DNA from: Clostridia bacterium
GTDB taxonomy: Bacteria > Bacillota > Clostridia > Oscillospirales > CAG-272
Reading direction: 5' to 3'
Assembly (NCBI GenBank): GCA_017938425.1
Contig: JAGBBQ010000017.1
Location: forward strand, 1 to 34,054
Length of the DNA: 34,054 bases
Below, in pieces: positions 7,301-24,505 of the stretch (position 1 is its first letter; every line of letters starts with the position of its first letter). The notes beneath the pieces were generated by a model that was not told where the DNA came from, searched no databases, and saw nothing but the letters and a program-made list of their open reading frames with translations. The position numbers and the translations under genes were made by a program.

Positions 7301-9822
7301 CTCATTGCATTCAAGCCGTGAAGCGTGAGCTTGCCGCCGTTAATCATAACGTCGCCGCCTGCTTCTATTGCGGTTCCAACGTCGGTAACGGTGATTTCGC
7401 CGCCGTTAATTTCCAAGCCGCCCTCCGACACGCAGATGCTTCTGTCGAAGAGTATATTGATCACGCCGCCGTTAATGACTGCGCGGTATGCGTAAATACC
7501 CGCGCCATATTCCTCGTCCGCAGCTTCAATATCAAAATTGCCGCCGTTTACCGTTACCAAGTAGGCGTCTAAGCCCGAAGATCCTACCAAATGGTATGCG
7601 CCGCTTTCTACGGTAAGTTCATAGCTAGATATTGCGTATTCATAAGCATCGATATCAAGTGCGCCGTTTTCATCACCAGCCGAAATCGTAAGGTCTTCCA
7701 CAGAGATACCGTTACCGTACTCCGCAACGATACTGCTTTCGCCTACGAGCAGGATATTTAATTCACCCAGAGCAATAATAGAGCCCAGGGAATAATCCTC
7801 GTCGGCAAAAAGAGCTTCCTCGGCGGTGAGGCTCATATTCGTCAAGGTAAGCGTTTTCGTGGCGGGATCGTAAGCCGCCGTGCCGTCCCCCAAAATATCG
7901 CCTTTATTCTGGGCTGTTACGGGGATACCGCCTACGTACAGATCGTAAAATGTAACGCCCTCCTCAGCACCCCATATCGCATACAGGCTTGCCCCATACG
8001 GGTCGACCTCAATCTCGGTGACGGGCTCGCCCATATACCATTCTGAAAAGCCCTTGAGCTCAAGCCCCTCGGGGGGAGTGACCACAGCATCTATGAAGTC
8101 CAAGGTATGCGTGCCGTAAGGAAGCATGTATTCCACCGCCGCGTGCGCGCCTGCTTTAGGATAATAAACGCGTACGGTCGCCGTTTTTTGCTTCAGCACT
8201 GCGTGGAACGCCATATTTTCGGTTACGGTGACGGTGTCACCCTCGTCATAAACGGTAGTACCGTCAACCGAACCGAGCGCCCAGCCGTCGAATTCATAAG
8301 CGAAGGGGAGCTCGTATTCGCAGGTCGGCAGCTGATACTCTTCGCCGATTTCCCGAATCTCCGAGGACATCAGATCTTCGTTCAGATAATACTCTATCCT
8401 TGCGCCCTCCGCAAGCCTGATATATTTATACTCCGCTATTTCAGCCGCGTCGTAATCCTGCGTCCAAGCTGTGCCGTCTGCATTTTCAGATACCTTAATG
8501 CAGGCTGTTTCGTAGTAGGAACGAAGATCGGGAGCCGCGCTCATTCCGGGTACGGTGTTCATCGCCGCTTCGGTACCCGCGACGGTGATGCTGCCGCCTT
8601 TTATTTCGCTGACGGCGTCAATACCGTATGCGCCGCTTACGGTAAGCGCTCCCGTCTCGCCTTCCTTAGTATCAGTATCAATAGTAAGAAGGCGATTGTC
8701 TGCTAATTTTATACCGTATTCCCCCGGCATGGCCGTCAGGGTGTTCTCGCCCGAAAGAATGATATTGAGGTCATCCTCGGAATACACGAGCGCCTTAAGG
8801 TCTCCCGAAAAGGCGTAACCGCTCGTGTTATTACAGGTAAAGTCCGTCAATGTGAGCGTGCGCGATATAGGATCAAAGAATACCCCTATGGGCATATTGG
8901 CGTTGGAAAGCTGAGTTCCGCCAATCCAGACGTTATGTACGGTAGGCTTTACCAATACGCGCTTGTAGGAGGCTTTGTCCTCATCGTCGTAAAACTGGGC
9001 GCTGTTGCCCTCGACATTGTCGTAGCCAAAGACTTCTGCGACGGTCAACGCGGGAAAAACAATGCTCTTACTCGAATTAAAGGCAGACGCGCCGTCACCC
9101 GAAGCTATAGCAAGAAGACAGCCCGACGTCATAGAAAAATTGCCGTCAATAGCGTGATTATCACCCGTTGCGGTCAGCGAGCCGCCGCTCATTGAGGTAC
9201 CGCCCGCGGCATAAACCGCGCCGTAATATCCCGTAACGGAATGAATACCGCCGCTAATGCTTACGCTGCCCGAGGCATAGATGCCGTAAGTGTTCCCGCG
9301 ATGTGTCAGATTCAGGCGGCCACCCTCAATAGATAGATCGCCCGCGTTGACCCTGATAGATTCGCTTGCATCAACAGTCAGCTTACCCGGGCCATTTATA
9401 TTCAACGAGTCGTTATTTACGTAAATTCCCGTAAAATCAGCGTTTACCGAGGCGCTTGCCTTAAAGCTGCTTTCACCAAGCAGAATGATATTTAAATCGC
9501 CCTCTGCATAGACGAGATAAAAATTATTCTGGCTTTCCTCATAGCCCCAGCCCTCGTATTCGTAATTACAAAGGATCAGCAAATCCTTATCCGGACGGTA
9601 AGCAAAGCCCTCGCTGCCGTTAAAATCAGGCGCGCCGTCCGTTGCCGTCACCTCACCGCTAATCAAGTGATGGCCGACCTCCAGCTTTACGCCACCGACG
9701 TAGAGCTCGGGAATTTCGATCGCCGATGCGCTGATGGGAGAGAGCGCAAGTGCCCCGAGCAATACGGCAAGCACGAAAAGCAGGCCGAGTGCAAAAGATC
9801 TTTTTCTCATTTTCATTTTCAT
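4345..9822 (-). CDS. Giant surface protein with parallel beta-helix modules, InlB repeats, Cys/His repeats and C-terminal membrane anchor (1825 aa)
   Basis: The start at 9822 has AAGGAG seven bases upstream and gives a classic signal peptide ending S-A-S-A. The protein carries five modules that open with an LYVGG or IIADGED header followed by LGDGTVSYDPKTNTLTLKGY, starting near residues 41, 296, 629, 976 and 1259. Each continues into GG-rich repeats (ADAVIKGDGSLEVNSPEGG, VNVQGGNITV) typical of right-handed beta helices such as the Cthe_2159-type carbohydrate-binding family. Two InlB (Listeria-Bacteroides) repeats lie at about 474-620. From about 1516 there are Cys/His-rich units, then a Pro/Asp linker and a membrane segment with a KKK tail. 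It is probably a polysaccharide-binding or adhesive surface protein. No catalytic motif is seen. Confidence 0.82.
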   Translation of the reverse strand: MKMKMRKRSFALGLLFVLAVLLGALALSPISASAIEIPELYVGGVKLEVGHHLISGEVTATDGAPDFNGSEGFAYRPDKDLLILCNYEYEGWGYEESQNNFYLVYAEGDLNIILLGESSFKASASVNADFTGIYVNNDSLNINGPGKLTVDASESIRVNAGDLSIEGGRLNLTHRGNTYGIYASGSVSISGGIHSVTGYYGAVYAAGGTSMSGGSLTATGDNHAIDGNFSMTSGCLLAIASGDGASAFNSSKSIVFPALTVAEVFGYDNVEGNSAQFYDDEDKASYKRVLVKPTVHNVWIGGTQLSNANMPIGVFFDPISRTLTLTDFTCNNTSGYAFSGDLKALVYSEDDLNIILSGENTLTAMPGEYGIKLADNRLLTIDTDTKEGETGALTVSGAYGIDAVSEIKGGSITVAGTEAAMNTVPGMSAAPDLRSYYETACIKVSENADGTAWTQDYDAAEIAEYKYIRLAEGARIEYYLNEDLMSSEIREIGEEYQLPTCEYELPFAYEFDGWALGSVDGTTVYDEGDTVTVTENMAFHAVLKQKTATVRVYYPKAGAHAAVEYMLPYGTHTLDFIDAVVTPPEGLELKGFSEWYMGEPVTEIEVDPYGASLYAIWGAEEGVTFYDLYVGGIPVTAQNKGDILGDGTAAYDPATKTLTLTNMSLTAEEALFADEDYSLGSIIALGELNILLVGESSIVAEYGNGISVEDLTISAGDENGALDIDAYEYAISSYELTVESGAYHLVGSSGLDAYLVTVNGGNFDIEAADEEYGAGIYAYRAVINGGVINILFDRSICVSEGGLEINGGEITVTDVGTAIEAGGDVMINGGKLTLHGLNAMSYGIFASDADVIISGEDTVVEIDGFGIGIYLETNESRFGMDGGSLKIIARDFGIFVRENGPYNEPYIKSGTLEISAGEAGGTFAYLHSGTPRPVPYNYIIRGKSDATASTNADGSAAVVYNEDDLGTYKYVSMTVTESYGIIIADGEDNGVMITKNNYADVLGDGTVSYDPKTNTLTLKGYKYEGEGFIYDGWSYGILALPNYMNTLTVLLEGENEITLTETEDVEAICVDGADAVIKGDGSLEVNSPEGGIYVRGDVNVQGGNITVNAFSAVSAYDFKMTGGSVNLNATYAIYTSSFAIAGGALTVTAVGDSAYGVYVQYYFVMNGGNVKIATVDKGIYAGTSSASLEVLGGTLEISTKNAGYAFVRYDSGNHIPILPDAWGEGTVTASVNADGSGAVAFDEAAFETYKYVKATVKLRFGIVIANGEDDGVMIDEDNYTDPLGDGTVSYDPQTNTLTLKGYKYEGEGFEDGGWFYGIFVVPDFMDTLTLLLEGENEITLTGTEYTEAICVEGADVVIKGNGSLEVNSPEGGICLYDASLEIQGGNAVINASCPIMTDGFTMNGGALTLTARGANVCGMMVYGFTMNGGSLNIGTDYVGIAVWLDGALTVCGGTLEISTKTAGYAFARYDAYEDEYLPTLPTVAGDNRMLASVNEDGSGAVALKETALESYKYVSIHVHDYGTDWRTDGSEHWNECACGDKANKAAHSGGSATCTAVAICSVCNAAYGSVTPHTHGSEWKNDANEHWNECSCGDKANKAAHSGGSATCQAKAKCEVCNAEYGELAACAGGTATCTEKAKCATCGKEYGEFAPHNYNITNGYKGSDGHANTCSCGAHDTPVSHTPDRTEATETDPIKCTVCGYIIEPVKGHVHAPKSEWKSDEDNHWHECTGCEGQQLEKAAHIDGNGDNKCDTCDYAMPTHDPDDPGTTPPADNPPTDDDGGLGAGAIAGIVCGSVAVAGIGGFALFWFVIKKKSFAELLMVFKK
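4945..5268 (-). repeat. Two tandem 162-bp (54-residue) Cys/His repeats
   Basis: The units 5107-5268 and 4945-5106 encode H-x5-W-x2-D-x2-EHWNEC-x-CGDKANKAAHSGGSATC and end in C-x2-CNA-x-YG. A 38-base core is nearly identical between them at DNA level, which indicates a recent duplication or gene conversion. Confidence 0.85.
5270..6900 (-). repeat. Tandem duplication of an approximately 850-bp beta-helix module
   Basis: Modules 4 (about 6055-6900) and 5 (about 5270-6050) of the giant protein share long near-identical protein stretches, including GDGTVSYDP-x-TNTLTLKGYKYE and GSLEVNSPEGG, and matching DNA such as GAATTCACTTCAAGCGAGCC. The other three modules are much more diverged, so this is the youngest expansion. 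Confidence 0.85.
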
Positions 9823-9837
9823 TTCTATCTCCTTTCC

Positions 9838-9851
9838 GCCGCCTTGGCGGC
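9838..9851 (-). other. Mini-hairpin just upstream of the giant gene's ribosome site
   Basis: GCCGCC and GGCGGC arms, separated by two bases, end 15 bases before the ATG at 9822, directly beside the AAGGAG site. Confidence 0.55.
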
Positions 9852-9868
9852 TGTACGAAGGATGTTTT

Positions 9869-9906
9869 GCGCAGTCCCCCTGCACAAAAAGGCGAGGGGA
9901 CTGCGC
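9869..9906. other. Large palindrome after the decayed anchor frame
   Basis: Perfect 11-bp arms GCGCAGTCCCC (9869-9879) and GGGGACTGCGC (9896-9906) lie 7 bases after the stop at 9914. No T tract follows on either strand. It occupies the same place relative to an anchor-encoding frame as the palindrome at 4307-4336. Confidence 0.6.
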
Positions 9907-9913
9907 CCGTTCA

Positions 9914-10144
9914 TCAAAGAAGCTTCTTTCTGATCACGAAAAAGTAGAGGCAGAAGCCACCGCCGCCGACTACGCCGACAGAGCCAAGCACGATGCCATC
10001 GATCGCACCTGCGCCGAGTCCGTCCTTATCGTCGCTCGGATCATCGGAAGTGTTATTCGGGTTGTCGGGCGTATTGTTAGGATTATCGGGAGTGTTGGGA
10101 GTGGTACTCATCTGATATTCACAAGTATTATTTATTATTTGTTT
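9914..10144 (-). pseudogene. Orphan C-terminal anchor of a lost surface protein
   Basis: The frame reads NNTCEYQMSTTP, then three rounds of Pro-Asp-Asn repeats, then GLGAGAIDGIVLGSVGVVGG and a segment ending FFVIRKKLL. This matches the last 60 residues of the three intact surface proteins, including the TC-x-Y-x-M motif that just precedes the linker in the giant protein (TCDYAM). The frame is closed by a stop just upstream, there is no signal peptide, and the only ATG (10111) has no ribosome site. It is best read as the 3' relic of a deleted gene, although expression as a 65-aa membrane peptide cannot be excluded. No other gene lies in 10145-10221. Confidence 0.7.
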
Positions 10145-10221: not shown

Positions 10222-10258
10222 TACCGCCCGTGGATTTCTGTAAAAGACACGGGCGGTA
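10222..10258 (-). terminator. Stem-loop ending the surface-protein gene set
   Basis: Perfect 11-bp arms TACCGCCCGTG (10222-10232) and CACGGGCGGTA (10248-10258) begin 3 bases after the stop of the 129-aa gene. On the minus strand a moderately T-rich TTATGCTTAT follows. It is a probable terminator or 3'-end protector. Confidence 0.6.
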
Positions 10259-10261
10259 CAC

Positions 10262-10651
10262 TTATACCTTTTGAATTTTTAAAATACCGCCCGATATGGA
10301 AAGATAGCCGTCATCATCCGTGAACACGGGGAAAAAGCCATCTCCCTTCTTTCCATAATCGATCATAATTGCCTCGCCCTCTATCCTTAGGGGGAAGGAG
10401 TCAAGAAGAATGCCTCTCTCGGAAATCTCCTTGCCCTCGTCCTCGGGGAGGATGGGCTCGCCGTCGCTCGGTTTATAGTAAATAGAAAGAGAGCTATCGG
10501 AAATGATGAAGTCCGAACGGAACATCATTTTCACTCGCTTCGTATAATTGTTATCCTCGAGGCTCGAAAGATCATCCTCGGATATCACTTGAAAACGACC
10601 CTTAGTCAGCGCGGTCATTTTCCTTAACTTCCATAAACCGGGGTATTCCAT
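10262..10651 (-). CDS. Small leaderless protein, paralog of the 12886-13266 product (129 aa)
   Basis: The start at 10651 (MEYPGLWKL) is chosen because AGGAGGG lies about nine bases upstream and because it aligns with the start of the 126-aa neighbour (MELLGVWRM). The two share SxxSLxxYYxP in the middle, GxLLxSxPxxI, then a DY-x(4)-G-x2-FFPV/YFPV-x3-DD-G-x-ISxG ending. There is no signal peptide, membrane segment or Cys. The beta-strand pattern would suit a small calycin/lipocalin-like barrel, but that is inference. It is the last gene of the set, 23 bases behind the 734-aa surface protein gene. Confidence 0.75.
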   Translation of the reverse strand: MEYPGLWKLRKMTALTKGRFQVISEDDLSSLEDNNYTKRVKMMFRSDFIISDSSLSIYYKPSDGEPILPEDEGKEISERGILLDSFPLRIEGEAIMIDYGKKGDGFFPVFTDDDGYLSISGGILKIQKV

Positions 10652-10674
10652 ACAGCTCTCCCTCCTCTGTAGCA

Positions 10675-12879
10675 TTAAGCCATTATCTTTTTTCTTATTA
10701 CGAACCACCACAGGCAGAAGCCACCGCCGCCGACTACGCCGACAGAGCCAAGCACGATGCCGACGATCGCGCCTGCTGAAAGTCCTTCAGGCTCAACTTC
10801 TCTTTCAAATCCGCAGAAATAGCAACTATTGTTTCCATTTGCGAAGATATGAGCGAGAGCTTCACTCTTTGCGCCGCAGGAGCATTTCTTGAAATGTCCG
10901 TTTTCATCCGACTCCCAATTTTCACCGTAGCTGTGAGCAAGAGGTGTTCCGAGTGTAGCCGAGCATACGGTACAGGTCTTCGGGGAGGTGCATGTAGCGG
11001 GAGAATAACTGTGAGCAAGAGGCGAGCCTACGGTAGCACCGCATTCGCTTCTCTGACAAACAGCAGCAGCCGTACAGCTTGCCTCTGAAAGGTCATGGCC
11101 AAGTGCCCCGGCAAGAGGTACACCGCAGTCAAGGCAGAACTGAGGGGTGGTGCACGTAGCGGGCTCACCGGGATTATGATCGCCACCCGAAAGGGCGTCG
11201 CCAATCGTTTGTCCACAGCCCTCGTTTGTACAGGTTGCGGGCGAAACACAGGTTGCGGGCGAATAGTTGTGTCCTGTTGCGGGAATCACACCGTAGGATG
11301 CAAGATCATCAATCATCTCCGTGCCCTCTGCGTCACGGTATGCTTTACCGCAATAGCAAGAATAATACTCTATTTTGCCGTCAACTTCACAGGCGGGAGC
11401 CTTTTCCTCTACCAAGACAGGCTTGCAGACGTGAGTGCCGTCGCCCTTAATACCCGTGCTTGCGTCATACTCGGTCAGGAACATTCCCATAACCGTCTTT
11501 GATCCCATTGGCATCAGTTGGGTTGCGATCCAATTTATACCGCTCACCTTCAAGAAATCGCTGCTTACAAGATCAGGGAGAGTATATCCTTCCTTCAAAT
11601 GCAGTATAACCAACAGCATGTATTGTCCGCCGTCCACAAACTCCTTGGCAGCTTTTCCATCTTCACCAAGCTCCAACCAACCGTATTCAAGGATCTCACC
11701 TATTCCAAGCTCCGATTTATAAACACAGTCACACTCCGGTGAACAAGCGTAATACATATCGGTTTCATCAATTTGCAGTGGTTTGGGCTCTGTTATGTCT
11801 ATGAGAGTTGAGCCGTCAAGCTCGATATCGTCAACGGGAACTCCGCCACTGAGTCCTCCAATACCCGTTTCAGCATCGTATACCATGTAAAAATGTACCG
11901 CATACTGTTTTCTGTCATGATTTTCCTGAGCATGGACGAAGTCGTTAACAGAAACCCAATCTACACCTTCGATCTTAATGTATCCGTTTTCCGGTATACC
12001 GGCTATGTCCGGTAACACGTATCCGTTACTTTCCTTTGCGTGAATGGCAACTCGGTAATAATACGCCTTGCCGTCCTCGAAAGTAATTACCTTTTCATCC
12101 GTCTCGGCATCATACCACTCGTTAGACGCCTGGCAGGGACCCCACATAGCGCCGCTGCCGCCGTATTTGCAGTTCGCGCAATCGTAACCGTCGCAGAAAT
12201 AATACTGCTCGGAGACGGGCGGCGAAAGCGTCGCGAGCGTGGGGGTCTTCTTCCCCACCATAGCGGAGCCGTCGATCTCTATGGGCAGCTCCACCACGGG
12301 CTTCCATATTGCTTTTACGACGATATTCTCGGTTACGCTAATATCCGCGTATGCGGAATAAGTCTTGTTTCCTATCTGCCAGCCTACGAAGCGATAGCCC
12401 TCGGGGGCTTCTACATAACAATCGGAGAGCATGAACTTTCCTTTTGCGAAGTCGGGCTTCTTAGTTCCCTGTGCGGGTGAAAGATCGTAAGAGATCTTAT
12501 AATCGTCGGTGAAGAAAACACCAAAGCTCGACGTTTCTGCAGCTATCTCGCCGTTGTTATCGATAGCCTGAATCTTAACATTCAGATTTACCTTTGCATC
12601 ACGGGTGATGCCATAGCTGTTGCCTTCCGCACTGTAAGGAACCTCGGCGATCTTTTCCCAAGCGCCCTTTCCGGTATTAAAAAGCATAACGTTGAAATGC
12701 TTTACCGCAACGCCAGTCTGCCAGGATATGGTCGCCTCAACGCCGACAAGCTCCGTAATGTCCTGAGGTGAGGTAGTGAATTTAACGTCCTCCTCTGCCG
12801 ATGCGGTGATCACGAACATCGCAAGCAGTATCGCGCAAAGCGATAAAACTGTCAAAAGAGTTATCCTTCTTGCTTTCAT
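10675..12879 (-). CDS. Surface protein with InlB-like repeat, Cys/His repeats and C-terminal membrane anchor (734 aa)
   Basis: A signal peptide ends VITASA. A fibronectin/Ig-like strand region follows (about 30-125), then an InlB-type repeat (YKISYDLSPAQGTKK to NIVVKAIWKP, about 125-195) and two related domains (about 200-480) carrying ISGV/IEGVDWV strands. Cys/His-rich units (HNYSPATC, HNPGEPATC, HSYSPATC) fill about 540-650, then the terminal unit H-x5-W-x2-DENGHFKKCSCG with SCYFCG. The end is GLSAGAIVGIVLGSVGVVGG, an aromatic stretch and RKK. The ribosome site AAAGGA overlaps the end of the preceding gene (6-base gap), so translation is probably coupled. It is likely membrane-anchored and outward-facing; the ligand is unknown. 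Confidence 0.8.
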   Translation of the reverse strand: MKARRITLLTVLSLCAILLAMFVITASAEEDVKFTTSPQDITELVGVEATISWQTGVAVKHFNVMLFNTGKGAWEKIAEVPYSAEGNSYGITRDAKVNLNVKIQAIDNNGEIAAETSSFGVFFTDDYKISYDLSPAQGTKKPDFAKGKFMLSDCYVEAPEGYRFVGWQIGNKTYSAYADISVTENIVVKAIWKPVVELPIEIDGSAMVGKKTPTLATLSPPVSEQYYFCDGYDCANCKYGGSGAMWGPCQASNEWYDAETDEKVITFEDGKAYYYRVAIHAKESNGYVLPDIAGIPENGYIKIEGVDWVSVNDFVHAQENHDRKQYAVHFYMVYDAETGIGGLSGGVPVDDIELDGSTLIDITEPKPLQIDETDMYYACSPECDCVYKSELGIGEILEYGWLELGEDGKAAKEFVDGGQYMLLVILHLKEGYTLPDLVSSDFLKVSGINWIATQLMPMGSKTVMGMFLTEYDASTGIKGDGTHVCKPVLVEEKAPACEVDGKIEYYSCYCGKAYRDAEGTEMIDDLASYGVIPATGHNYSPATCVSPATCTNEGCGQTIGDALSGGDHNPGEPATCTTPQFCLDCGVPLAGALGHDLSEASCTAAAVCQRSECGATVGSPLAHSYSPATCTSPKTCTVCSATLGTPLAHSYGENWESDENGHFKKCSCGAKSEALAHIFANGNNSCYFCGFEREVEPEGLSAGAIVGIVLGSVGVVGGGGFCLWWFVIRKKIMA

Positions 12880-12885
12880 AATGTT

Positions 12886-13266
12886 TTATCCTTTCTTTTC
12901 CAAACGAATCGTTCCGTCGGATATGATAAGGCCTTCCTCATCGTCAAGCCTGACGGGGAAATACTCCTTTCCTTCCCTCTCATAGTCAAGCATCAGAACG
13001 CCGTCAACGATCTTTGCAGGATAGCTCTCAAGGAGCACGCCCTTATCGGTCAGCTCCCAGCCCTCCTCTTTGACCGTTTCCATCTCCTCGGGAAGAGGCA
13101 TATAGTACATATCGAGAGCGCTCTCGCTAAGGTGAAATTCTGCGCGCAAAAGCTTGTTAAGATCCTCGTCACCGAGTGCGGCCACCTCATCTCTTGAGAG
13201 CATCCTCGTACCGTTTTCGTCAGCCGAGAACATTGCATTCATTCTCCAAACGCCCAAAAGCTCCAT
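12886..13266 (-). CDS. Small leaderless protein, paralog of the 10262-10651 product (126 aa)
   Basis: The start at 13266 (MELLGVWRM) has AAAGGATGG upstream; a 31-codon extension upstream would run through the hairpin array and is rejected. The protein is acidic, lacks signal and membrane segments, and contains MLSRDEVAALGDEDL, a stretch I associate with a family of small clostridial proteins that often open MELxGxW. Its stop overlaps the ribosome site of the 734-aa surface gene. Pairing with a secreted protein suggests a helper or sensor role, but no function is known. Confidence 0.75.
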   Translation of the reverse strand: MELLGVWRMNAMFSADENGTRMLSRDEVAALGDEDLNKLLRAEFHLSESALDMYYMPLPEEMETVKEEGWELTDKGVLLESYPAKIVDGVLMLDYEREGKEYFPVRLDDEEGLIISDGTIRLEKKG

Positions 13267-13286
13267 AATTATTACCATCCTTTCAC

Positions 13287-13385
13287 GTTGCCCAAGGCAA
13301 CATATCGCGCCGCCCAAGGCGGCATATCGCTCCTGCGAAGCAGGAATATCACGCGCCAACGGCGCATATCACGTGCCGAAGGCAC
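13287..13385 (-). repeat. Array of five mini-hairpins with changing stems and a constant spacer
   Basis: Five perfect hairpins (13287-13301, 13309-13323, 13331-13345, 13353-13365, 13373-13385) have stems of 5-6 bp and 3-base loops. Each is followed on the plus strand by ATATCGC or ATATCAC (ATACTAG after the last). The stem sequence differs in every unit, yet both arms always match, so pairing rather than sequence is kept. The array fills the gap between the DUF6935 stop (13389) and the ribosome site of the 126-aa gene and would be transcribed in the leader of the latter. Confidence 0.9.
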
Positions 13386-13388
13386 ATA

Positions 13389-13967
13389 CTAGGCCCACGC
13401 ATCCTGCGACTTCGGGATTCGGATATCGGAAAGCAGATTCTGCTCCCACAAATACCAGGTGCCTCCTCCGGTCTTGCGAAGGGTGATCGAGCGGGGGCTG
13501 TCTGCACCGCCGCTATGTATCCAGAGCTGCATATAATTGCCGCCCTCAAGCTTTGAATACTGGTTGGAAATGATCTTCACGGTATAGGGTTGCGTGGGCG
13601 TGTATTCATTCTCGGGAGTCGCGCCTGCAAAATAAGAGCGCGCAACGTAATTTTTACCGTCCATAAGTCTGTCGTTTAAGAACGCCAGCTCCATAGGACT
13701 CATAGGACGAGGTCCGCGAAGGAAGTTGAGCATTTCCGTTCCGTTTTCACGGTCCTCGGAATAAACGCAAAGAGCGCAGAGCGCAAGTGCCGCACTCTTG
13801 AATGGATCGTCCATAGATATTTCGGGAAGTGCCTTCAGCTCCTCTAAGTTTTTGGGAAGCTTTTCGAACGTAAAGGTTGCCTTTTTGGAAAGCGAAGCGA
13901 GAAGCTTGTTTTTCACAAAGGAGACAGGCTTTTTCACGCTCGAGGTTAATAATCTGATCAAGTCCAT
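13389..13967 (-). CDS. DUF6935 family protein (192 aa)
   Basis: The text FTFEKLPKNLEELKALPEIS, then DDPFKSAALALCALCVY, MLNFLRGPRPMSPMELAFL, DGKNYVARSYFAGATPENEY and a WYLWEQ-x-LLSDIR-x-PKS ending match what I recall of DUF6935, a clostridial family without known function. No signal peptide is seen; the first 25 residues are basic and amphipathic. AAAGGAGGT lies before the ATG at 13967. It sits between an unknown 176-aa gene and the hairpin array, within the surface-protein set. The conserved Trp, Arg and Asp in the C-terminal half might form a binding site, but this is inference. Confidence 0.8.
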   Translation of the reverse strand: MDLIRLLTSSVKKPVSFVKNKLLASLSKKATFTFEKLPKNLEELKALPEISMDDPFKSAALALCALCVYSEDRENGTEMLNFLRGPRPMSPMELAFLNDRLMDGKNYVARSYFAGATPENEYTPTQPYTVKIISNQYSKLEGGNYMQLWIHSGGADSPRSITLRKTGGGTWYLWEQNLLSDIRIPKSQDAWA

Positions 13968-13992
13968 ATAGACCTCCTTTTAAATTCGGCGT

Positions 13993-14523
13993 TTATTCAT
14001 CGCCGCTATCTGCCATACCGAAGATACGGTACAGCTCTTTAGCAAATTCGATCGGTATGATCGGATCCTGGTTATTATAGCAGTAAAGCGTTTCTCCCGA
14101 CTCATATTCGGCATCGATCGATGCACCGTAAAAATCGGGCAATCCGCTGACCTTGTAATAACGACCGTTGAGGCTCTCGATGCCGTGCTCCTTTATCAGA
14201 GCGGCTATCCTGTCGAGTACCTCACACGGAAGCTTTCGGCTGATCTTCTTGCCTCCGAGGGAGCCTCGGATGCACTCCGCGGTGCACCCTGCTCCATCGT
14301 TTTCTCTTATTGCTGTGAATTTGTAATCTCCGGCAGGTATCTCGCGCTCATCGATAAGGGAGAGCGTAGAATAGCGGCAGGAAAGCTTCACTAAGGTGTC
14401 CGATATGATCTCCTTTGGAGCGTCGATATCATTGCTGATCCTCGTGCCTCCGTCGATACACGGACCCTCATATATTCTGTCGCGACGCTTTTTGCGCCAC
14501 TTTTTTATCAAATTTAAAAACAT
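13993..14523 (-). CDS. Unrecognised small protein (176 aa)
   Basis: The start at 14523 (MFLNLIKKW) lies 11 bases after the stop of the 1034-aa surface gene. No clear Shine-Dalgarno sequence is visible, so translation is probably coupled. The first 15 residues are hydrophobic then strongly basic (KKWRKKRR), which might tether the protein to the inner membrane face. The body shows alternating beta strands, a helix (CEVLDRIAALIKEHGIESLN) and YYKVSGLPDFYGASIDAEY. I do not recognise a named domain. A longer in-frame extension upstream is a shadow of the surface gene's anchor. Confidence 0.65.
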   Translation of the reverse strand: MFLNLIKKWRKKRRDRIYEGPCIDGGTRISNDIDAPKEIISDTLVKLSCRYSTLSLIDEREIPAGDYKFTAIRENDGAGCTAECIRGSLGGKKISRKLPCEVLDRIAALIKEHGIESLNGRYYKVSGLPDFYGASIDAEYESGETLYCYNNQDPIIPIEFAKELYRIFGMADSGDE

Positions 14524-14534
14524 AACTTTACATT

Positions 14535-17500
14535 TTACATTCTTTTCTTTCTGATAACGAACCAGAAGAGGCAGAATCCGCCGCCGCCGACTACTGCTAC
14601 AGAGCCAAGAACGATAGCTACGATAGCGCCTGCGCCAAGGCCCCCAGACATAACGTATCCGCACTTGTCGCAGCTCTTGTCGCCGTCATCGTCAGCGTGT
14701 GCCTCACCCTCAGAGCGAGCTCCGCAAGCGCAGAGCTTGTAATGCTCATTCTCGTCGTTCAGGTAGCTCTCGCCATAGGTGTGACCGATAGCCTCTGCAA
14801 GGATGGCCTCACATTCCGAGCACTTCGACGGCTCGGTACAAGTAGCTGCGCCTGCAGGAGTATGTCCGTTTGCAGGGTTGAGCTCGGCTGTACATACAGT
14901 ACAAAGCTGGGGCTCGGTGCAGGTCGCAGAAGCACCGGGGGTATGACCGAGTGCGTGAACGAGAGTAACCTGACATACGGTACAGATCTGAGGATCGGTG
15001 CAGGTTGCGGCAGTTCCGGGGGTATGACCTAAGGCACTACCTACAGTCTCCTCACATCCCTTATGGATGCAGCTGCCCGCGCTTGTGCAGGTGGGATCGC
15101 TGAATTCGTGACCTATCGAAAAGGCAAGAATCTTGGAGCAAGCGGTACATTTCTGAGGATCGGTGCAGGTTGCAGCAGCGCCGGGGGTATGATCTACAAT
15201 CGTTTCTCTGTGCTTTCCGCACACGCTACAGTTTTCCTGGCAGTCGGAGTCGTAGAAATGAAGAGGTCCGCCGTCAAGGTCAGCTGTTCTCACGTGACCG
15301 CAATTGTTGCAAACCTCGTCGCACGGGGTGTTGTTTCCGTATTGATGATTCGTTGCCATATCACCGTTCGGCAGCTGAGACATATCGTTTCTTCCACGGT
15401 CAACGTCGGGGCAATCCGCGATAGTACACTCATATCCGCACGTACCGTCGCCGAAGTCTACTTTAGTCTTGCTGTATACGTGAATATGAGTAGCCGGATC
15501 GTCGTTATTATTTGTGGGAACGTATACCGCGTAAAGAGTAACTGCCGTGTTATTTGACGTTGTAGCGTATCTTCCACTTGTTATGATCTGATTCGATCCA
15601 TCCGTCTCTGCCCATCCGATGAAGGTAGATCCCGCGGGAGCGGTGCATCCCTCAAATCCCGGAAGCATTATCTCATCGCCCACCTTTGCCGTGATCGACT
15701 CAACGGTTCCGGTGCCTGCACCAAGATCAAAGTTTACTATAACATCGGAAAGCTTTTCGGGATAGAATACGTAATTTATAAATGCAAGATCGGGAGATAT
15801 TACGGAGAAGTCTGCGTAATTGCCGTTTACGGAAGCATTTACGCCGTCAACGAAGTAATACTCGCTCGACAGATTGACCGTCAGCTGAAGGTAATAAAGA
15901 TAATCTGCCTCGAATCTGTCGTCAAGGGACATAGGATCGTTGCTGCCCTCACAATACCAGGATGCCTTAACGATTCTGACAATATCCTTAAAGATCTCGT
16001 CTAACAGGATCTTCTCGGAGAAGGAGCCACCCTCGGTCGGTACAGCTATGCTGAAGTCGAGATCAAACGGGAATCTGGAGGGAGCTACGTCGAAGTCTGC
16101 GATAATGACAGCTTCGGTATCGCTGACCTTCTCTGCCTTCACCGACTTTGCGCCGCTTACCTCTGCGGTAAGGTTATCTCCGAAGGTGAAGTCTCTGTAT
16201 CCATAGACAGCGATCGGCACTTTGATACGGTAAGTGTTGCCGTAAACAAAGGTCTTATCCGCGCTCAGCTCAACGGCATTGTCGGGATCGGTCACGTCGA
16301 ACCATTCGATCTCTCCGCTCACGTTGTATCCGGTACCAAAGGTAGGAAGGTTGGAAGTATGAGACTGACCGTGAACGACGTTGCCAACATTCATAGTGAC
16401 GTTTGTCAACTCACCTCTTGTACCGCAAACAAGTCTTACGGCAACGTAGCAGACAGTGGGATCAAGATAATCGACCATTACATCTGCGATTCCCTCGTTT
16501 ACGCTAGCCTCAAGGAAGTCGAAGAATGTGTGAGCTATATCGGATCTGACGGTGAAGGAGAGCGTATAAGTCTCGCCTTCCTCGAACACGTCGTTTTCGG
16601 TCATTGGCCGGCTGTTGTAATACCAGGAAACACCGTTTATGTATCCTTCGTCGACAAACTCACTGTCTATAGCATACGTATAGTCACCGGTGGTTATGGA
16701 ATCCGTGCTGAAGGTGGGATGATTGCCTGCAACGGGTGCCGATATACCCGAAAACGCAACCGATTCGATCTGTTCGGTCTTGACCGAGTCAAAGATCACT
16801 GTCGCAGTGAGTCTTCCCTGCTCGATGTTGTAGTCCTCGCGGTTTACGAGATAATCGATAGGCTTTCCGTTGAAAAAGCCCTTTACGTACAGAGGCTCTG
16901 AGGAGGGCTCTGCGGAAACGTCAAAGCGCATACCGTCCACTGCGGATAATCCGAACTCTACGCGGTAGGTATTTCCGGAAACAAACACTTCATTTGGAGG
17001 AAGATATACCCAACCCTTCTCGGTCATCTTCGACCAAGCAGGGCTGCTCTCCGGCTCTACGAGGGGATTGTCAGACTCCACCGAGAAATCCTGCTTACTG
17101 CCCGCCATAGGAGCATCAAGCTTTGCCGGTGGATAATAGATAACGCCGTCGGGAATCTGATCGAACTTGTATATGATACGAATGTATTCTTTTGCGTTTG
17201 CGTCAAGAGGAAGGCCTCTTAATATCCTCATAGGAGTCTTTTCTTTAGCGGTACCGGCATTGATCTTTGCATCAAAATGTTCAAGATCTTCATCTTCAGC
17301 CGGCCAGGTGCGATCGCCCTTTGCCTTGACGATAAGCTGCAGGTAGTAGGTATTTCCGCCGAGGAACACCGTACCGTTACTCATCTTGTGATCATCGTCG
17401 TAATTGTCCTTATACCACTGGACAGCGGTAATTTCATAGTGATTCTTGTTGTCGACCCAAGTGACTGTTTCGGGGCTGTTGTTTACTTTTCTGCCCGCTT

Positions 17501-17639
17501 CAGCGCCGGATACGTCGACGTGCACTTTTGTTATTTCGTTCGTGATCGTAAGCGCGGATACTGAGATCGCAGCACTGCATATCAAAGAAAGGATCATAAC
17601 GAGTGCAGATAAAAATGCTAAAAATCTTTTTGCTTTCAT
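14535..17639 (-). CDS. Surface protein with repeated beta domains, five Cys/His units and C-terminal membrane anchor (1034 aa)
   Basis: A signal peptide ends SVSA (residue about 29). Repeated domains of about 90-110 residues follow, each with a VSWYYN or VQWYKD strand, a DVFEEGETYTLSFTV-type segment and an aromatic end. They resemble beta-sandwich adhesion modules. An InlB-like piece (GSTFIGWAETDGS) lies near 700. Residues about 816-952 hold five 27-28-residue units of the form H-T-P-G-x-x-ATCT-x3-x-C-x2-C, ending in GH. Then come a terminal unit (ENEHYKLCACG, DKSCDKCGYVM), GGLGAGAIVAIVLGSVAVVG, FVIRKKRM. GGGAGAG-like purines lie before the ATG. It is the largest product of the LuxR-adjacent operon. 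Metal binding by the Cys/His units is plausible but unproven. Confidence 0.8.
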   Translation of the reverse strand: MKAKRFLAFLSALVMILSLICSAAISVSALTITNEITKVHVDVSGAEAGRKVNNSPETVTWVDNKNHYEITAVQWYKDNYDDDHKMSNGTVFLGGNTYYLQLIVKAKGDRTWPAEDEDLEHFDAKINAGTAKEKTPMRILRGLPLDANAKEYIRIIYKFDQIPDGVIYYPPAKLDAPMAGSKQDFSVESDNPLVEPESSPAWSKMTEKGWVYLPPNEVFVSGNTYRVEFGLSAVDGMRFDVSAEPSSEPLYVKGFFNGKPIDYLVNREDYNIEQGRLTATVIFDSVKTEQIESVAFSGISAPVAGNHPTFSTDSITTGDYTYAIDSEFVDEGYINGVSWYYNSRPMTENDVFEEGETYTLSFTVRSDIAHTFFDFLEASVNEGIADVMVDYLDPTVCYVAVRLVCGTRGELTNVTMNVGNVVHGQSHTSNLPTFGTGYNVSGEIEWFDVTDPDNAVELSADKTFVYGNTYRIKVPIAVYGYRDFTFGDNLTAEVSGAKSVKAEKVSDTEAVIIADFDVAPSRFPFDLDFSIAVPTEGGSFSEKILLDEIFKDIVRIVKASWYCEGSNDPMSLDDRFEADYLYYLQLTVNLSSEYYFVDGVNASVNGNYADFSVISPDLAFINYVFYPEKLSDVIVNFDLGAGTGTVESITAKVGDEIMLPGFEGCTAPAGSTFIGWAETDGSNQIITSGRYATTSNNTAVTLYAVYVPTNNNDDPATHIHVYSKTKVDFGDGTCGYECTIADCPDVDRGRNDMSQLPNGDMATNHQYGNNTPCDEVCNNCGHVRTADLDGGPLHFYDSDCQENCSVCGKHRETIVDHTPGAAATCTDPQKCTACSKILAFSIGHEFSDPTCTSAGSCIHKGCEETVGSALGHTPGTAATCTDPQICTVCQVTLVHALGHTPGASATCTEPQLCTVCTAELNPANGHTPAGAATCTEPSKCSECEAILAEAIGHTYGESYLNDENEHYKLCACGARSEGEAHADDDGDKSCDKCGYVMSGGLGAGAIVAIVLGSVAVVGGGGFCLFWFVIRKKRM

Positions 17640-17655
17640 TGTTTCTCTCCCATAT

Positions 17656-18087
17656 TTAAATTTTATTTAAAACCAATTGAACATTCTCCAGCACTTCCAA
17701 AAATTTAAGCTTACCTCTCGGCTGACGTATGGTGTCACCGTCGAATTCAACCCGTACCTGTCCGGGCAGGGTGTGAGCTTCTCCGCTTTCATCAAAAAGC
17801 TCCATGCAGAAGTACCATACCGCCGTGTCGAGATTTTTATGCCTTTCGGGGCAGAAGAATTTGATCACTCGTCCTGATCGCTTCAGCTCGAACAGACAAT
17901 AATCCCTGTCGGAGTGTTCGGGTACGGTGAAGATTGGAAAGTCCTTTTCAAACATCATCGAAAAGGTATCGTGCTGCCCGCTTATCAGCAGAAAATCGGT
18001 CTCGGGAACATTCTCGTTGATGAGATATTCAAGACCTTTTTCCACGGGAAATTCAAACTCGCCAAATAGGATGCGTTTGTCGGTCAC
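17656..18087 (-). CDS. Unrecognised leader gene of the surface operon (143 aa)
   Basis: The start is GTG at 18087 with GGAGGTGG about nine bases upstream. An overlapping ATG two bases upstream is followed at once by TGA and cannot start the frame. The protein has no signal peptide or membrane segment and is rich in Phe, Glu and Asp, with TAVWYFCMELFDESGE and GQVRVEFDGDTIRQPRGKLK as the most distinctive parts. I recognise no domain. It is the first gene after the palindrome-bearing promoter, 16 bases before the 1034-aa surface gene. Confidence 0.7.
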   Translation of the reverse strand: MTDKRILFGEFEFPVEKGLEYLINENVPETDFLLISGQHDTFSMMFEKDFPIFTVPEHSDRDYCLFELKRSGRVIKFFCPERHKNLDTAVWYFCMELFDESGEAHTLPGQVRVEFDGDTIRQPRGKLKFLEVLENVQLVLNKI

Positions 18088-18142
18088 ATTTCACCACCTC
18101 CGTTTTCATTTTCCAGACAGTACCGAATTCCATCTTGCCTAT

Positions 18143-18153
18143 ATTTTATCATA
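18143..18153 (-). promoter_or_regulatory. Predicted -10 region of the surface operon
   Basis: On the minus strand TATGAT (18153-18148) and TAAAAT (18148-18143) are both usable -10 boxes. The expected -35 position holds no TTGACA-like sequence and instead abuts the GGGGTA palindrome at 18173-18187. That is the usual form of an activator-dependent promoter. Confidence 0.55.
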
Positions 18154-18172
18154 AGCCATTTATTTTGGCATC

Positions 18173-18219
18173 TACCCCTTAGGGGTAAAAGTATCAAAAT
18201 TAGGGGTAGGTTTGGGGTA
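18173..18219 (-). promoter_or_regulatory. Palindromic operator with phased half-sites, candidate LuxR binding site
   Basis: TACCCCT-T-AGGGGTA (18173-18187) is a 7-bp perfect dyad. Further GGGGTA half-sites lie at 18203-18208 and 18214-18219, so the three copies start 21 and 11 bases apart, close to two and one helical turns. The cluster lies just upstream of the -10 of the 143-aa gene and beside the gene for a 7TM-LuxR regulator. The link to that protein is inference from position and symmetry. Confidence 0.6.
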
Positions 18220-18291: not shown

Positions 18292-18330
18292 TGAAATAAA
18301 AAAGGACGACGGTGCTTTTTCCGTCGTCCG
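18292..18330 (-). terminator. Intrinsic terminator of the LuxR gene
   Basis: A perfect 9-bp stem GGACGACGG/CCGTCGTCC (18304-18312, 18321-18329) is followed on the minus strand by TTTTTTATTTC. It lies just after the LuxR stop at 18352, so the surface operon downstream needs its own promoter. Confidence 0.9.
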
Positions 18331-18351: not shown

Positions 18352-19311
18352 TTATTGTTTTTTCACGAGAATCGCATACAATTCCTCTCGGCAGGTCACG
18401 CCGAGCTTGGAGTAAAGGGTTCGCGTATAGAGCTTCACGGAGCTCTCCGATACGTACAAAATTTCGGCGATCTCTCTGCGTTTTTTATATTGAAGTATCA
18501 GCTCCAGCACCTCGCGCTCACGGGGAGCGAGGGTCTCGCCGCTCTTCAAGCACAAAAGCACCTTGCCGATCTTTATGTCCATCGGCATCGTGGCGATATC
18601 GATCCCCAGCTGCTCCGACTCCGCGGGAGTGAAGGTGGGAATATCGCTCTTATGAACGTAATCCTGCATCATCCAATAAACGAGCAGAAGCAGAAGCTCG
18701 GATGCTATGTAGGTGACCGAAAGGAATTCGTATTCCCAACGCACGAGCTTTTCGAACAGCCACATCAGAAGATTGCTGAATACAATGGCGGCGATAAAGC
18801 CTGCGAGCTTGGGCCCGGCGATCTTCTTTTTTCTGACCGAGTGAACGATCGTACCGATCATTGCGGCAAAATAGCCGAGCAGATACACCATATAGAAGGG
18901 ATGCAGCACGCCGTATTCCTTTACGAGCTTCGCCGCACCGTCGATCATTTCAATATCCACGCTCTTGTAGTATAGCGGGAGCATCGGCGCGCTTGCGACG
19001 ATGGCGAACATCAGTACGCCGAGCGAAACGCAGGTGATCACGCGTGCTTTCTTGATCTCAAATCCGCAAAGCCGAACGATCGTCAGGAACATAAACGCCG
19101 AGAGAAACACGCTGCCGAGGTACGCCACGTCGTTGGCAAACAGAGCAAAGCCTACGGTATTTGCAAGGGATATCAGAAGGTATCCGAGATTGACCACCGT
19201 AATGCTGATATACAGCATCGTCAGCCAAAGCTCCTTATTTTTTACCATCAGCAGGTAGGCGATCAGCAAGCCTATGGCGGCTATCAGGCATATCGCATAT
19301 CCAACTGTCAT
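18352..19311 (-). CDS. Membrane-bound LuxR-family regulator with 7TM N-terminal domain (319 aa)
   Basis: The first 225 residues form about seven hydrophobic helices, in the manner of the histidine-kinase N-terminal 7TM domain. The end (261-319) is a LuxR/GerE helix-turn-helix: LAPREREVLELIL, then REIAEILYVSESSVKLYTRT, then LYSKLGV. There is no receiver or kinase domain, so it is a one-component membrane sensor that binds DNA directly. AAGGAGG lies before the ATG. It is preceded by two good promoters, closed by a strong terminator, and sits directly upstream of the surface operon, whose promoter carries a fitting palindrome. The signal it senses is unknown. Confidence 0.85.
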   Translation of the reverse strand: MTVGYAICLIAAIGLLIAYLLMVKNKELWLTMLYISITVVNLGYLLISLANTVGFALFANDVAYLGSVFLSAFMFLTIVRLCGFEIKKARVITCVSLGVLMFAIVASAPMLPLYYKSVDIEMIDGAAKLVKEYGVLHPFYMVYLLGYFAAMIGTIVHSVRKKKIAGPKLAGFIAAIVFSNLLMWLFEKLVRWEYEFLSVTYIASELLLLLVYWMMQDYVHKSDIPTFTPAESEQLGIDIATMPMDIKIGKVLLCLKSGETLAPREREVLELILQYKKRREIAEILYVSESSVKLYTRTLYSKLGVTCREELYAILVKKQ

Positions 19312-19584: not shown

Positions 19585-20889
19585 TCACAGAATATCCACC
19601 GTTTCATGACCAAGCGCCTTATTCATGCTTCGCACGGCGCAGAACTTTCCGCACATCGAGCAGGTATCCTCGTGCTCGGGCTTGCGCTCGTCGCGGATAC
19701 GCTTCGCCGTTTCGGGATCCAGAGCGCACGCCCACTGTGCCTCCCAATCGAGCCTGCGGCGCGCATCTCCCATACGGTCGTCGATATCCCTTGCGTGAGG
19801 GATCTTCTTGGCAATGTCCGCTGCGTGCGCCGCAATCTTGGAGGCGATAATTCCCTGCTTCACGTCGTCCACGTTGGGAAGCGCCAGATGCTCGGCGGGG
19901 GTCACGTAGCAAAGGAAGGCGGCACCCGATGCCGCGGCGATCGCACCGCCGATCGCGGAGGTGATATGATCGTAGCCGGGCGCAATATCGGTAACGATAG
20001 GACCGAGAACGTAGAAGGGCGCGCCCATACAGACCGTCTGCTGCAGCTTCATATTGGCTTCGATCTGATCCATCGGCATATGTCCGGGACCCTCTACCAT
20101 CACCTGTACATCCTTTTCCCAAGCACGCTTTGTCAGCTCTCCGAGGCGCACAAGCTCCTCGATCTGACACACGTCGCTGCCGTCCGCAAGGCAGCCGGGA
20201 CGGCAGGCATCACCGAGAGAAATGGTCACGTCATACGCACGGCAGATCTCAAGGATCTCATCGAAATACTCGTAGAAGGGGTTTTCCTCCCCCGTCATGC
20301 ACATCCAGGCAAACACGAGCGAGCCGCCGCGGGAGACGATGTTCATTTTTCTCTTATGCTTTCTGATCTGCTCGATGGTCTTACGGGTAATACCGCAATG
20401 AAGGGTAACGAAGTCCACGCCGTCCTCCGCGTGAAGCCTTACCACATCGATAAAGTCCTTTGCGGTGAGGGTCGCGAGGTCGCGCTGATAGTGGATCACG
20501 CTATCGTACACGGGAACGGTGCCGATCATCGCGGGACACTCACTTGTGAGCTTTCTGCGGAAGGGCCGGGTGTTGCCGTGGGAGGAGAGATCCATAATTG
20601 CCTCCGCACCCATATGGACCGCCGCCATCACCTTTTCCATCTCAATATCGTAATCCTTGCAGTCGCGGGACACCCCGAGATTCACGTTGATCTTGGTGCG
20701 AAGCATCGAGCCGACGCCGTTCGGATCGATGCAGGTATGTAACCTGTTGGCGCAGATCGCGACCTGCCCTTTTGCAACGAGGTCGCGGATCTCTTCTTCG
20801 GTTCTGTATTCCTTGGCGGCGACCGCCTTCATTTCGGGCGTGATCAAGCCATGTCTTGCGGCGTCCATTTGCGTTGTGTAATTTCTCAT
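19585..20889 (-). CDS. thiC: Phosphomethylpyrimidine synthase ThiC (434 aa)
   Basis: ThiC is a cytoplasmic radical-SAM enzyme that rearranges aminoimidazole ribotide to HMP phosphate, the pyrimidine half of thiamin. Family signatures visible here are [58 protein letters not shown] and the C-terminal cluster motif C410-x2-C413-x4-C417 ([11 protein letters not shown]). The length fits the Firmicutes form, which lacks the plant and proteobacterial N-terminal extension. It is the last gene of the operon, 25 bases behind thiD, with AAAGGA before the ATG. Confidence 0.97.
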
Positions 20890-20914
20890 TGCAATCGATT
20901 CCTTTCAAACGGTT

Positions 20915-21712: not shown

Positions 21713-21716
21713 TTTC

Positions 21717-22364: not shown

Positions 22365-22374
22365 ATTCTTCTCC

Positions 22375-23628: not shown

Positions 23629-23649
23629 AAAATCTCCTCCTAATGATTG

Positions 23650-23716
23650 GAGTTCCGAAGGAACTCGTGGGCGGGATAAGCGAATTTACAAAACATATAA
23701 TGCATCATTCCCGCCC
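23650..23716 (-). other. Structured thiG-thiH intercistronic region
   Basis: A long-range stem GGGCGGGA/TCCCGCCC (23669-23676 with 23709-23716) begins immediately after the thiG stop. A perfect 7-bp hairpin GAGTTCC-gaa-GGAACTC (23650-23666) follows, ending 21 bases before the thiH start. There is no T tract, so RNA processing or differential stability is likelier than termination. Confidence 0.65.
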
Positions 23717-24487: not shown

Positions 24488-24505
24488 TTTGTTTTCCTCT
24501 TTTCC

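What the first reader, a model, noticed from the sequence alone, without database searches (positions are those of the whole stretch)
10262..18219. LuxR-adjacent operon that alternates anchored surface proteins with small leaderless proteins
One minus-strand set reads 143 aa, 1034-aa surface protein, 176 aa, DUF6935, 126 aa, 734-aa surface protein, 129 aa. Gaps are short except for the hairpin array, and a terminator follows. The two surface proteins are each flanked by small proteins without signals. Nothing in the set is an enzyme I can recognise. Co-transcription of outward-facing Cys/His proteins with several cytosolic partners of unknown family suggests an uncharacterised surface or envelope system.
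Basis: partly seen in the sequence, partly recalled or inferred. Interest (0 to 1): 0.72.

Follow-up and report, generated by a model that had tools for sequence, protein, structure and literature searches.

The report
Sensor-controlled, swappable bacterial surface-protein operon
In Clostridia related to gut bacteria of deer, goats and sheep, a membrane sensor appears to switch on one neighbouring set of genes for large surface proteins and small helper proteins, and that set seems to be swapped between species behind the sensor.

Summary
In detail: seven minus-strand ORFs, gaps 6-25 bp except one of 122 bp. (2) The LuxR gene belongs to the unit: upstream on the same strand in 8 of 8 loci with enough sequence, a 7TM membrane regulator. 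(3) Between them lies an ACCC half-site array, typically 29 bp from a -10. A strict form occurs at 20 of 26 LuxRs of this type and at one other place in 2.34 Mb of overlapping loci. Half-site letters follow one recognition-helix residue in 24 of 26 (22 of 23 without the weak W class). The five-gene block is 92% identical in DNA to a species whose other aligned stretches are 70-80%, behind a LuxR only 41% identical: probable cassette exchange. Best reading: a membrane one-component activator driving an adjacent surface-display operon. What the small proteins do is unshown; structure prediction was off. New variant of a known kind.

The parts
18352..19311 (-). LuxR7TM: membrane regulator, N-terminal 7TM (HisKA_7TM) plus C-terminal GerE/LuxR HTH, recognition helix SESSVKLYTRTL
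   Evidence: Pfam PF16927 E 1.6e-10 and PF00196 E 6.6e-12; upstream of the operon in 8 of 8 loci with enough sequence
18304..18329 (-). intrinsic terminator between LuxR and the operon
   Evidence: 9-bp stem plus T run; -17.6 kcal/mol, z -5.05
18174..18218 (-). operator-like array: three direct TACCCC-type half-sites and one inverted GGGGTA
18143..18148 (-). -10 hexamer TAAAAT, 29 bp from the inverted half-site; transcript start expected near 18136
   Evidence: site also listed with a weak -35 (9 of 12 in all)
17656..18087 (-). P143, small protein, first gene of the operon; optional in relatives
   Evidence: homologues aligned; tblastn
14535..17639 (-). S1034, surface protein with signal-like segment, Cys/His repeats and C-terminal membrane anchor
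13993..14523 (-). P176, unnamed family; some relatives carry an N-terminal membrane segment
   Evidence: alignment, hydropathy; adjacent upstream of DUF6935 in 14 of 112 non-redundant DUF6935 loci
13389..13967 (-). DUF6935 protein
   Evidence: PF22043 E 5.4e-58
13282..13388 (-). hairpin array with GATATG-like linkers; absent at the same site in L005 and L074
   Evidence: sequences
12886..13266 (-). P126, small GxW protein
10675..12879 (-). S734, surface protein with signal-like segment and membrane anchor
10262..10651 (-). P129, paralogue of P126
   Evidence: BLASTP E 4e-27
10222..10258 (-). strong hairpin after P129 (terminator-like, weak U run)
9914..10111 (-). orphan C-terminal anchor ORF (65 aa, no signal), probable remnant of a further surface gene
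   Evidence: repeat D1 (75% to the S734 anchor DNA)
4345..9885 (-). 1846-aa surface protein beyond the hairpin, five PF14262 (Cthe_2159) stretches; membership of the operon uncertain
   Evidence: PF14262 E 1.1e-23

Best explanation
The window carries a self-contained, regulated surface-display unit. LuxR7TM (inferred) senses a signal at the membrane and binds as an activator to the TACCCC array; the palindromic pair lies about 41-44 bp upstream of the expected start (a class II activator position) and makes up for a weak -35. It thereby switches on one operon: P143, large membrane-anchored surface proteins, and the leaderless proteins P176, DUF6935 and P126/P129. The surface proteins probably bind something outside the cell (perhaps polysaccharide in herbivore hindgut, a guess resting on the neighbouring 1846-aa protein); the leaderless proteins probably act at the inner face of the membrane in display or envelope protection. 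The surface cassette moves between species as a block behind different LuxR heads. Shown by sequence: gene order, array, spacing, helix/half-site covariation, mosaic identity. Inferred: activation, the signal, what is bound outside, and what the small proteins do.
For: Gene order. LuxR upstream on the same strand in 8 of 8 loci with enough sequence. An array in the LuxR-operon gap in 12 of 12 loci read by eye; 9 of the 12 by a four-part pattern, with no other match in 2.07 Mb of overlapping loci and 0 in 3 Markov passes. In 60 genus genomes a tighter pattern matches 4 times, each at LuxR7TM, reversed control 0; it misses 3 of the 7 genomes with LuxR7TM (G016, G018, G022). Palindrome + 25 + -10: 46 matches in 2.34 Mb of overlapping loci, 44 with at least two upstream half-sites, all at LuxR7TM: 20 of the 26 T/M/L/W-type LuxRs with 200 bp or more downstream. 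The 29-bp spacing was fixed on the first 12 loci and then found in 10 of the 12 further array-type loci fetched that have downstream sequence. Helix residue to half-site: T-TC 14 of 15, M-AC 6 of 6, L-TT 2 of 2, W-CT 2 of 3 (in both W cases CT ties with two other pairs); 24 of 26, or 22 of 23 without W; 0 of 20000 permutations each. The tree needs 13 label changes and its strongly supported branches force two origins of L. Cassette: DNA 92% to G006 against 80, 76, 71 and 70% for the four other stretches aligned from a 10.8-kb query; LuxR 41% to G006, LuxR-P143 77% in DNA to G058. Precedent: E. lenta 12-TM LuxR activators (PMC9734109, passages read).
Against: No expression, binding or localisation data. 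Six of 26 LuxRs miss the strict operator: L004, L077, L194 and L179 have variant arrays, L190 a degraded one, L191 none. The patterns and helix classes were drawn up after seeing part of the data, and permutation ignores kinship. L213's large gene looks like a lipoprotein without a C-terminal anchor. A second LuxR7TM subfamily (HTH KENTLKxHNKN) has no array. The mosaic could in part be a metagenome assembly or binning artefact; two MAGs (L079, L080) share 7,360 bp at 100%. The in-operon surface genes of five relatives do not match PF14262, which weakens the polysaccharide guess. DUF6935 also lives in other contexts.
Confidence: 0.6

Rival explanations
1. The small proteins are an envelope-stress module, like the B. 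subtilis YdjGHI-PspA set; the LuxR senses envelope damage and the surface proteins are protective rather than adhesive.
For: Elsewhere DUF6935 has, on the same strand within 6 kb, an SPFH-type gene in 24 of 112 non-redundant loci, a TPM gene in 14 and a zinc-ribbon protein in 15, although PF13421 is scarce (32 matches in 21 of 24 genomes searched). YdjI with YdjG/H links PspA to the membrane (PMC8581546, abstract and outline). L045 and L091 carry surface gene, P176, DUF6935 and an SPFH-like ORF together (SPFH E 2e-11 and 5e-14).
Against: No PF13421 match in the window's genome (genome 68.6% complete); none of the 7 loci with LuxR, surface gene, P176 and P126 has SPFH or TPM within 6 kb on the same strand.
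Confidence: 0.22
2. A mere cluster of independently expressed, fast-changing surface genes with hitch-hiking small genes; LuxR is a neighbour by chance.
For: The LuxRs of L004, L005, L063 and L066 are only 41-46% identical to the window's, and P143 is optional.
Against: LuxR in 8 of 8 loci; array with near-constant spacing and helix covariation; gaps of 6-25 bp between most genes.
Confidence: 0.06
3. Contact-dependent or polymorphic toxin/immunity locus: large surface proteins as delivery platforms and small leaderless proteins as immunity proteins.
For: Large surface proteins followed by small, partly paralogous leaderless proteins.
Against: C-termini of the large proteins are membrane anchors; no toxin, immunity or defence family was found (PADLOC 78, PHROGs for the small proteins 79); DUF6935 is 99% identical between G000 and G006, not diversified.
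Confidence: 0.04

Closest known systems
10-12-TM LuxR-type activators of Eggerthella lenta (DadR, CadR, HcdR; PMC9734109, passages read)
   Same: Polytopic membrane domain fused to a C-terminal LuxR HTH; locus-specific regulator of a nearby gene; many paralogues
   Different: Here a 7TM (HisKA_7TM) domain, Clostridia, target is a surface-protein operon, not a metabolic enzyme; signal unknown; activation not shown
DUF6935 family (Pfam PF22043)
   Same: Member by profile, E 5.4e-58
   Different: Family has no named function; here tied to P176, P126 and surface proteins
YdjGHI-PspA envelope-stress set of B. subtilis (PMC8581546, abstract and outline)
   Same: DUF6935 genes lie near SPFH, TPM and zinc-ribbon genes in some other genomes
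   Different: None of these genes in the window's operon
Cthe_2159-type carbohydrate-binding proteins (PF14262)
   Same: The 1846-aa neighbour beyond the hairpin has five such stretches
   Different: S1034 and S734 match no family above its cut-off; surface genes at the matching place in five relatives show InlB B-repeats (4 of 5 above cut-off) and weak beta-helix matches, not PF14262
Sortase-anchored (LPXTG) adhesin loci (recalled)
   Same: Large secreted repeat proteins with C-terminal hydrophobic segment and basic tail
   Different: No LPXTG motif at the C-termini of S1034 and S734; anchoring looks like a plain membrane segment

Membership tests
Membrane LuxR activator (E. lenta type) | C-terminal LuxR/GerE HTH | tested here: met
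   PF00196 E 6.6e-12
Membrane LuxR activator (E. lenta type) | N-terminal 10-12 transmembrane helices | tested here: not met
   HisKA_7TM region, 6 segments by a simple hydropathy scan
Membrane LuxR activator (E. lenta type) | Activates the nearby gene on an inducer | not testable with these tools
   array at class II distance is indirect support only
DUF6935 (PF22043) | Profile match above gathering score | tested here: met
   195.9 bits against 27
YdjGHI-PspA envelope-stress set | SPFH (PF13421) gene present | tested here: not met
   no match in G000; genome 68.6% complete
Sortase-anchored adhesin locus | LPXTG-like motif before the C-terminal segment | tested here: not met
   C-termini of S1034 and S734 read
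Sortase-anchored adhesin locus | Sortase gene | not tested
   no search made
Lipocalin-like small protein (P126/P129) | Eight-stranded barrel with GxW at the first strand (recalled) | tested here: inconclusive
   G invariant and W in at least 90% of 33 rows; one member each weakly matches DUF5004 (E 0.1) and DUF5640 (E 0.13); structure prediction unavailable

The most novel reading that the evidence does not exclude
A family-wide, modular surface-switching system: many LuxR7TM heads, each with its own operator dialect set largely by one recognition-helix residue (T, M or L; W less sure), so that paralogous units stay insulated even within one genome (G089), and interchangeable surface cassettes that move between species behind the heads, some carrying a dedicated inner-face apparatus (P176-DUF6935-P126).
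Probability: 0.4. Interest if true: 0.78.

Novelty: new variant of a known kind. Interest (0 to 1): 0.64.

Why it matters
It turns an anonymous gene cluster into a testable unit: one regulator, one operator with known spacing, one operon. The helix-to-operator covariation offers a natural specificity code for the LuxR/GerE DNA-binding fold, and the cassette exchange suggests how uncultured herbivore gut Clostridia remodel their surfaces. It also gives DUF6935, for which the library searched holds no paper, partners and a setting.

Tried and rejected
Toxin/defence reading: no PADLOC match for the small or large proteins (only a weak CARF hit, E 0.0033, to the LuxR HTH) and no PHROG match for the five small ones; set aside. 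Solved-structure searches by sequence gave nothing usable: A2 best E 0.54, A3 0.36, A4 none, A8 none, A6 0.58, A7 0.15; the A2 list included S-layer and neurotoxin chains at E 0.54-0.95, taken as noise and not pursued. Structure prediction of DUF6935 and P126 could not be run. LuxR as a marker of DUF6935 only: rejected, since 4 further genus genomes have a near full-length LuxR7TM match (G018's with an internal stop) and no DUF6935 match; there LuxR is followed by a surface protein, or by P143 near a contig end. 'The helix code is only descent': weighed against the tree, which needs 13 changes; L occurs twice on separate strongly supported branches, but W and K could each be one origin. Hairpin array as a dispersed repeat: the own-genome pattern had one N too few, so its zero is uninformative; roughly similar units were picked up in L171 and L070. 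In one search the L004_S1164 row was read in the wrong frame and is ignored. My automatic gene picker chose antisense ORFs in L063 and L066; all ORFs were read instead. One search searched missing files and was redone. Rows dropped: of 123 DUF6935 loci, 112 non-redundant were counted. Of 53 LuxR places listed, regions around 20 were fetched for reading. Of 49 distinct LuxR proteins, 29 are of T/M/L/W type and 26 of these, with 200 bp or more downstream, entered the association test; L177, L187 and L188 were too short.
Full report
OBSERVATION. The seven minus-strand genes are real with gaps of 16, 11, 25, 122, 6 and 23 bp. S1034 and S734 have a signal-like segment and a C-terminal membrane anchor and are rich in Cys (34 and 30) and His (24 and 14), with 4 and 2 [TS]C-x(4-9)-CxxC units towards the C-terminus. 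DUF6935 is confirmed (PF22043, E 5.4e-58); the other four small proteins reach no Pfam or NCBIfam cut-off. P126 and P129 are paralogues.

CONSERVED ORDER. PF22043 is found in 3 of 60 genomes of the genus and 79 of 295 of the family. One scan of named genomes kept the best 80 of 245 relatives; the nine closest (75% identity or more; the next is 59-63%) are MAGs, five of them from roe deer, goat, water deer and sheep hindgut. With the window these are ten genomes: WIN, L074, L075 (=L005, G006), L076, L077, L078, L079, L080 (=L063, G318), L081 (=L066, G333), L082 (=L004, G016). L079 and L080 are identical over 7,360 bp, so there are nine different sequences. All ten read surface protein > P176 > DUF6935 > P126 (L077 has two P176 copies). 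Eight of eight with enough upstream sequence have LuxR7TM first on the same strand (L074 and L079 are cut). A second P126-type gene is seen in 7 of 10, in 5 of them directly after the first; in WIN and L074 S734 stands between. More widely, P176 lies next to DUF6935, upstream, in 14 of 112 non-redundant DUF6935 loci, and a P126-type gene next to it in 26 downstream and 4 upstream. Chromosomal neighbours differ: a thiamine set in the window (ThiC recognised by eye), LexA-like and DNA polymerase Y-like genes at L004 and a Nif3-like gene at L005 (read by eye).

LUXR7TM AND ITS TARGET. The LuxR is a HisKA_7TM plus GerE protein. In the genus a near full-length match is found in 7 of 60 genomes (two further genomes match over part, and G018's match has an internal stop): the three with DUF6935 and four without. 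In those four the next gene is a surface protein (G022, G011) or P143 (G058, G018); the G058 and G018 contigs end soon after, so DUF6935 may be unassembled there. Family-wide, 46 of 295 genomes match. Reading the 26 T/M/L/W-type LuxRs with 200 bp or more downstream: 17 are followed by a complete anchored surface protein (directly or after P143 or a short ORF), 5 by a signal-bearing protein cut by the contig end, 1 (L213) by a large lipoprotein-like protein, 2 only by P143 before the view ends (L168, L194), 1 (L191) by no gene. P143-type genes occur in 11 of the 26; nine by alignment or tblastn, the window included, two (L208, L194) by eye.

OPERATOR. After the LuxR terminator comes a set of (T)CACCC-type half-sites, usually three direct copies and one inverted copy (12 of 12 loci by eye). 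A four-part pattern drawn from these was found 19 times in 2,070,152 bases of overlapping loci, nine distinct genomes, all in this gap, with 0 in three Markov-simulated passes. In 60 whole genomes of the genus a slightly tighter pattern matches four times, each directly after LuxR7TM, with 0 in the reversed control; it misses three of the seven LuxR7TM genomes. The inverted half-site lies 29 bp from a -10 hexamer in 11 of 12 loci (in L077 it reads TAGG rather than GGGT; L004 is the exception). A general form (ACCC N1-5 GGGT N25 TANNNT) gives 46 matches in 2,339,395 bases of overlapping loci; 44 have two or more further half-sites in the 50 bases upstream and all 44 are at LuxR7TM (20 distinct LuxR loci of the 26); the other two are one off-target terminator seen in two overlapping loci. 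Of the 12 array-type loci with downstream sequence fetched, after the 29-bp spacing had been fixed, 10 fit it; L206 and L216 do not. With the start about 7 bp after the -10, the palindrome falls near -41 to -44, a class II activator position (general knowledge).

A SPECIFICITY CODE. The residue after SENTVK (SESSVK in the window) in the recognition helix goes with the commonest two bases before ACCC: T with TC (14 of 15; L191 has no array), M with AC (6 of 6), L with TT (2 of 2: the window and L214), W with CT (2 of 3, and in both CT only ties with two other pairs; the third, L194, has no ACCC but CTATAC repeats). That is 24 of 26, or 22 of 23 without W, with 0 of 20000 permutations as good in either case. 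Permutation ignores kinship, so I built a tree of all 49: the seven labels need 13 changes against 29.4 in shuffles, and the two L proteins lie on separate, strongly supported branches next to T proteins. Recombination within LuxR could distort the tree but not the association. Genome G089 holds two units, one L with TTACCC and one T with TCACCC.

CASSETTE EXCHANGE. Window 17650-13390 and 13263-10670 are 92% identical in DNA to G006. Other stretches of a 10.8-kb piece of G006 that align to G000 are 80% (prfB), 76, 71 and 70% identical. LuxR is 41% identical in protein to G006, while LuxR-P143 of the window is 77% identical in DNA to G058, whose next surface protein starts differently. So head and cassette seem to have different histories; the join lies between P143 and S1034. 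Assembly or binning error is not excluded. The hairpin array at 13282-13388 is absent from L005 and L074 at the same site, and L004 has a different repeat there, so it is probably an insertion, not a conserved regulator.

FUNCTION. The 1846-aa gene beyond the hairpin carries five PF14262 stretches, a hint of polysaccharide binding; but the surface genes at the corresponding place in five relatives match InlB B-repeats (4 of 5 above cut-off) and, weakly, beta-helices, not PF14262, so this remains a guess. The small proteins have no membrane segment in the window; some P176 relatives have an N-terminal one, and the first residues of DUF6935 look amphipathic (by eye). Elsewhere DUF6935 lies, on the same strand within 6 kb, near SPFH-type (24 of 112), TPM (14) and zinc-ribbon (15) genes, although PF13421 has only 32 matches in 24 genomes, which suggests a membrane-side role. 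P126/P129 look lipocalin-like to me (recalled pattern GxW; Pfam support only at E 0.1).

LITERATURE. No paper in the library holds 'DUF6935'. Six phrases for membrane LuxR proteins found three papers, two of them on gut catechol-metabolising bacteria (listing); E. lenta 12-TM LuxRs are the nearest precedent (passages read; a second set of terms hit only its reference list). Searches (3 listed of 3; 8 of 11; 4 of 5) listed no title on a 7TM LuxR controlling surface proteins. Most subscription papers and all preprints lie outside that library.

Noticed in passing
window 13282-13388: Hairpin array with GATATG-like linkers inserted between DUF6935 and P126; L004 carries a different repeat at the same gap, so this gap seems to collect repeats.
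   Followed up: partly
window 9914-10111: Orphan anchor ORF with the same membrane segment as the surface proteins but no signal; the anchor DNA is a shared repeat (75-76% between copies) and may serve as a recombination point.
   Followed up: partly
L042, L045, L050, L091: A surface protein, P176 with membrane segment and DUF6935 form a trio in other genera; L042, L045 and L050 add two small zinc-ribbon-type proteins, and L045 and L091 an SPFH-like ORF.
   Followed up: partly
L209, L217-L222: A second 7TM-LuxR subfamily (HTH KENTLKxHNKN) without the CACCC array; target unknown.
   Followed up: no
L101, L122, L123: A third type (SENTVKKH) in Oscillospiraceae near DUF6935 with TTACCC/TCACCC sites but no evident palindrome (by eye).
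   Followed up: no
L212 upstream of its P143 gene: Six TCACCC half-sites, several about 11 bp apart.
   Followed up: no
L161/L168 (G018): The LuxR7TM match has an internal TAG; pseudogene or assembly error.
   Followed up: no
L079 and L080: Two MAGs held as different species share 7,360 bp at 100% identity across the operon: very recent transfer or binning error.
   Followed up: no
window 19585-25141: Thiamine synthesis genes (ThiC by eye, PF08543, PF02581, PF06968, PF05690, PF00899) next to the LuxR gene; no ThiC match was found in G006 or G016 (both incomplete genomes).
   Followed up: partly
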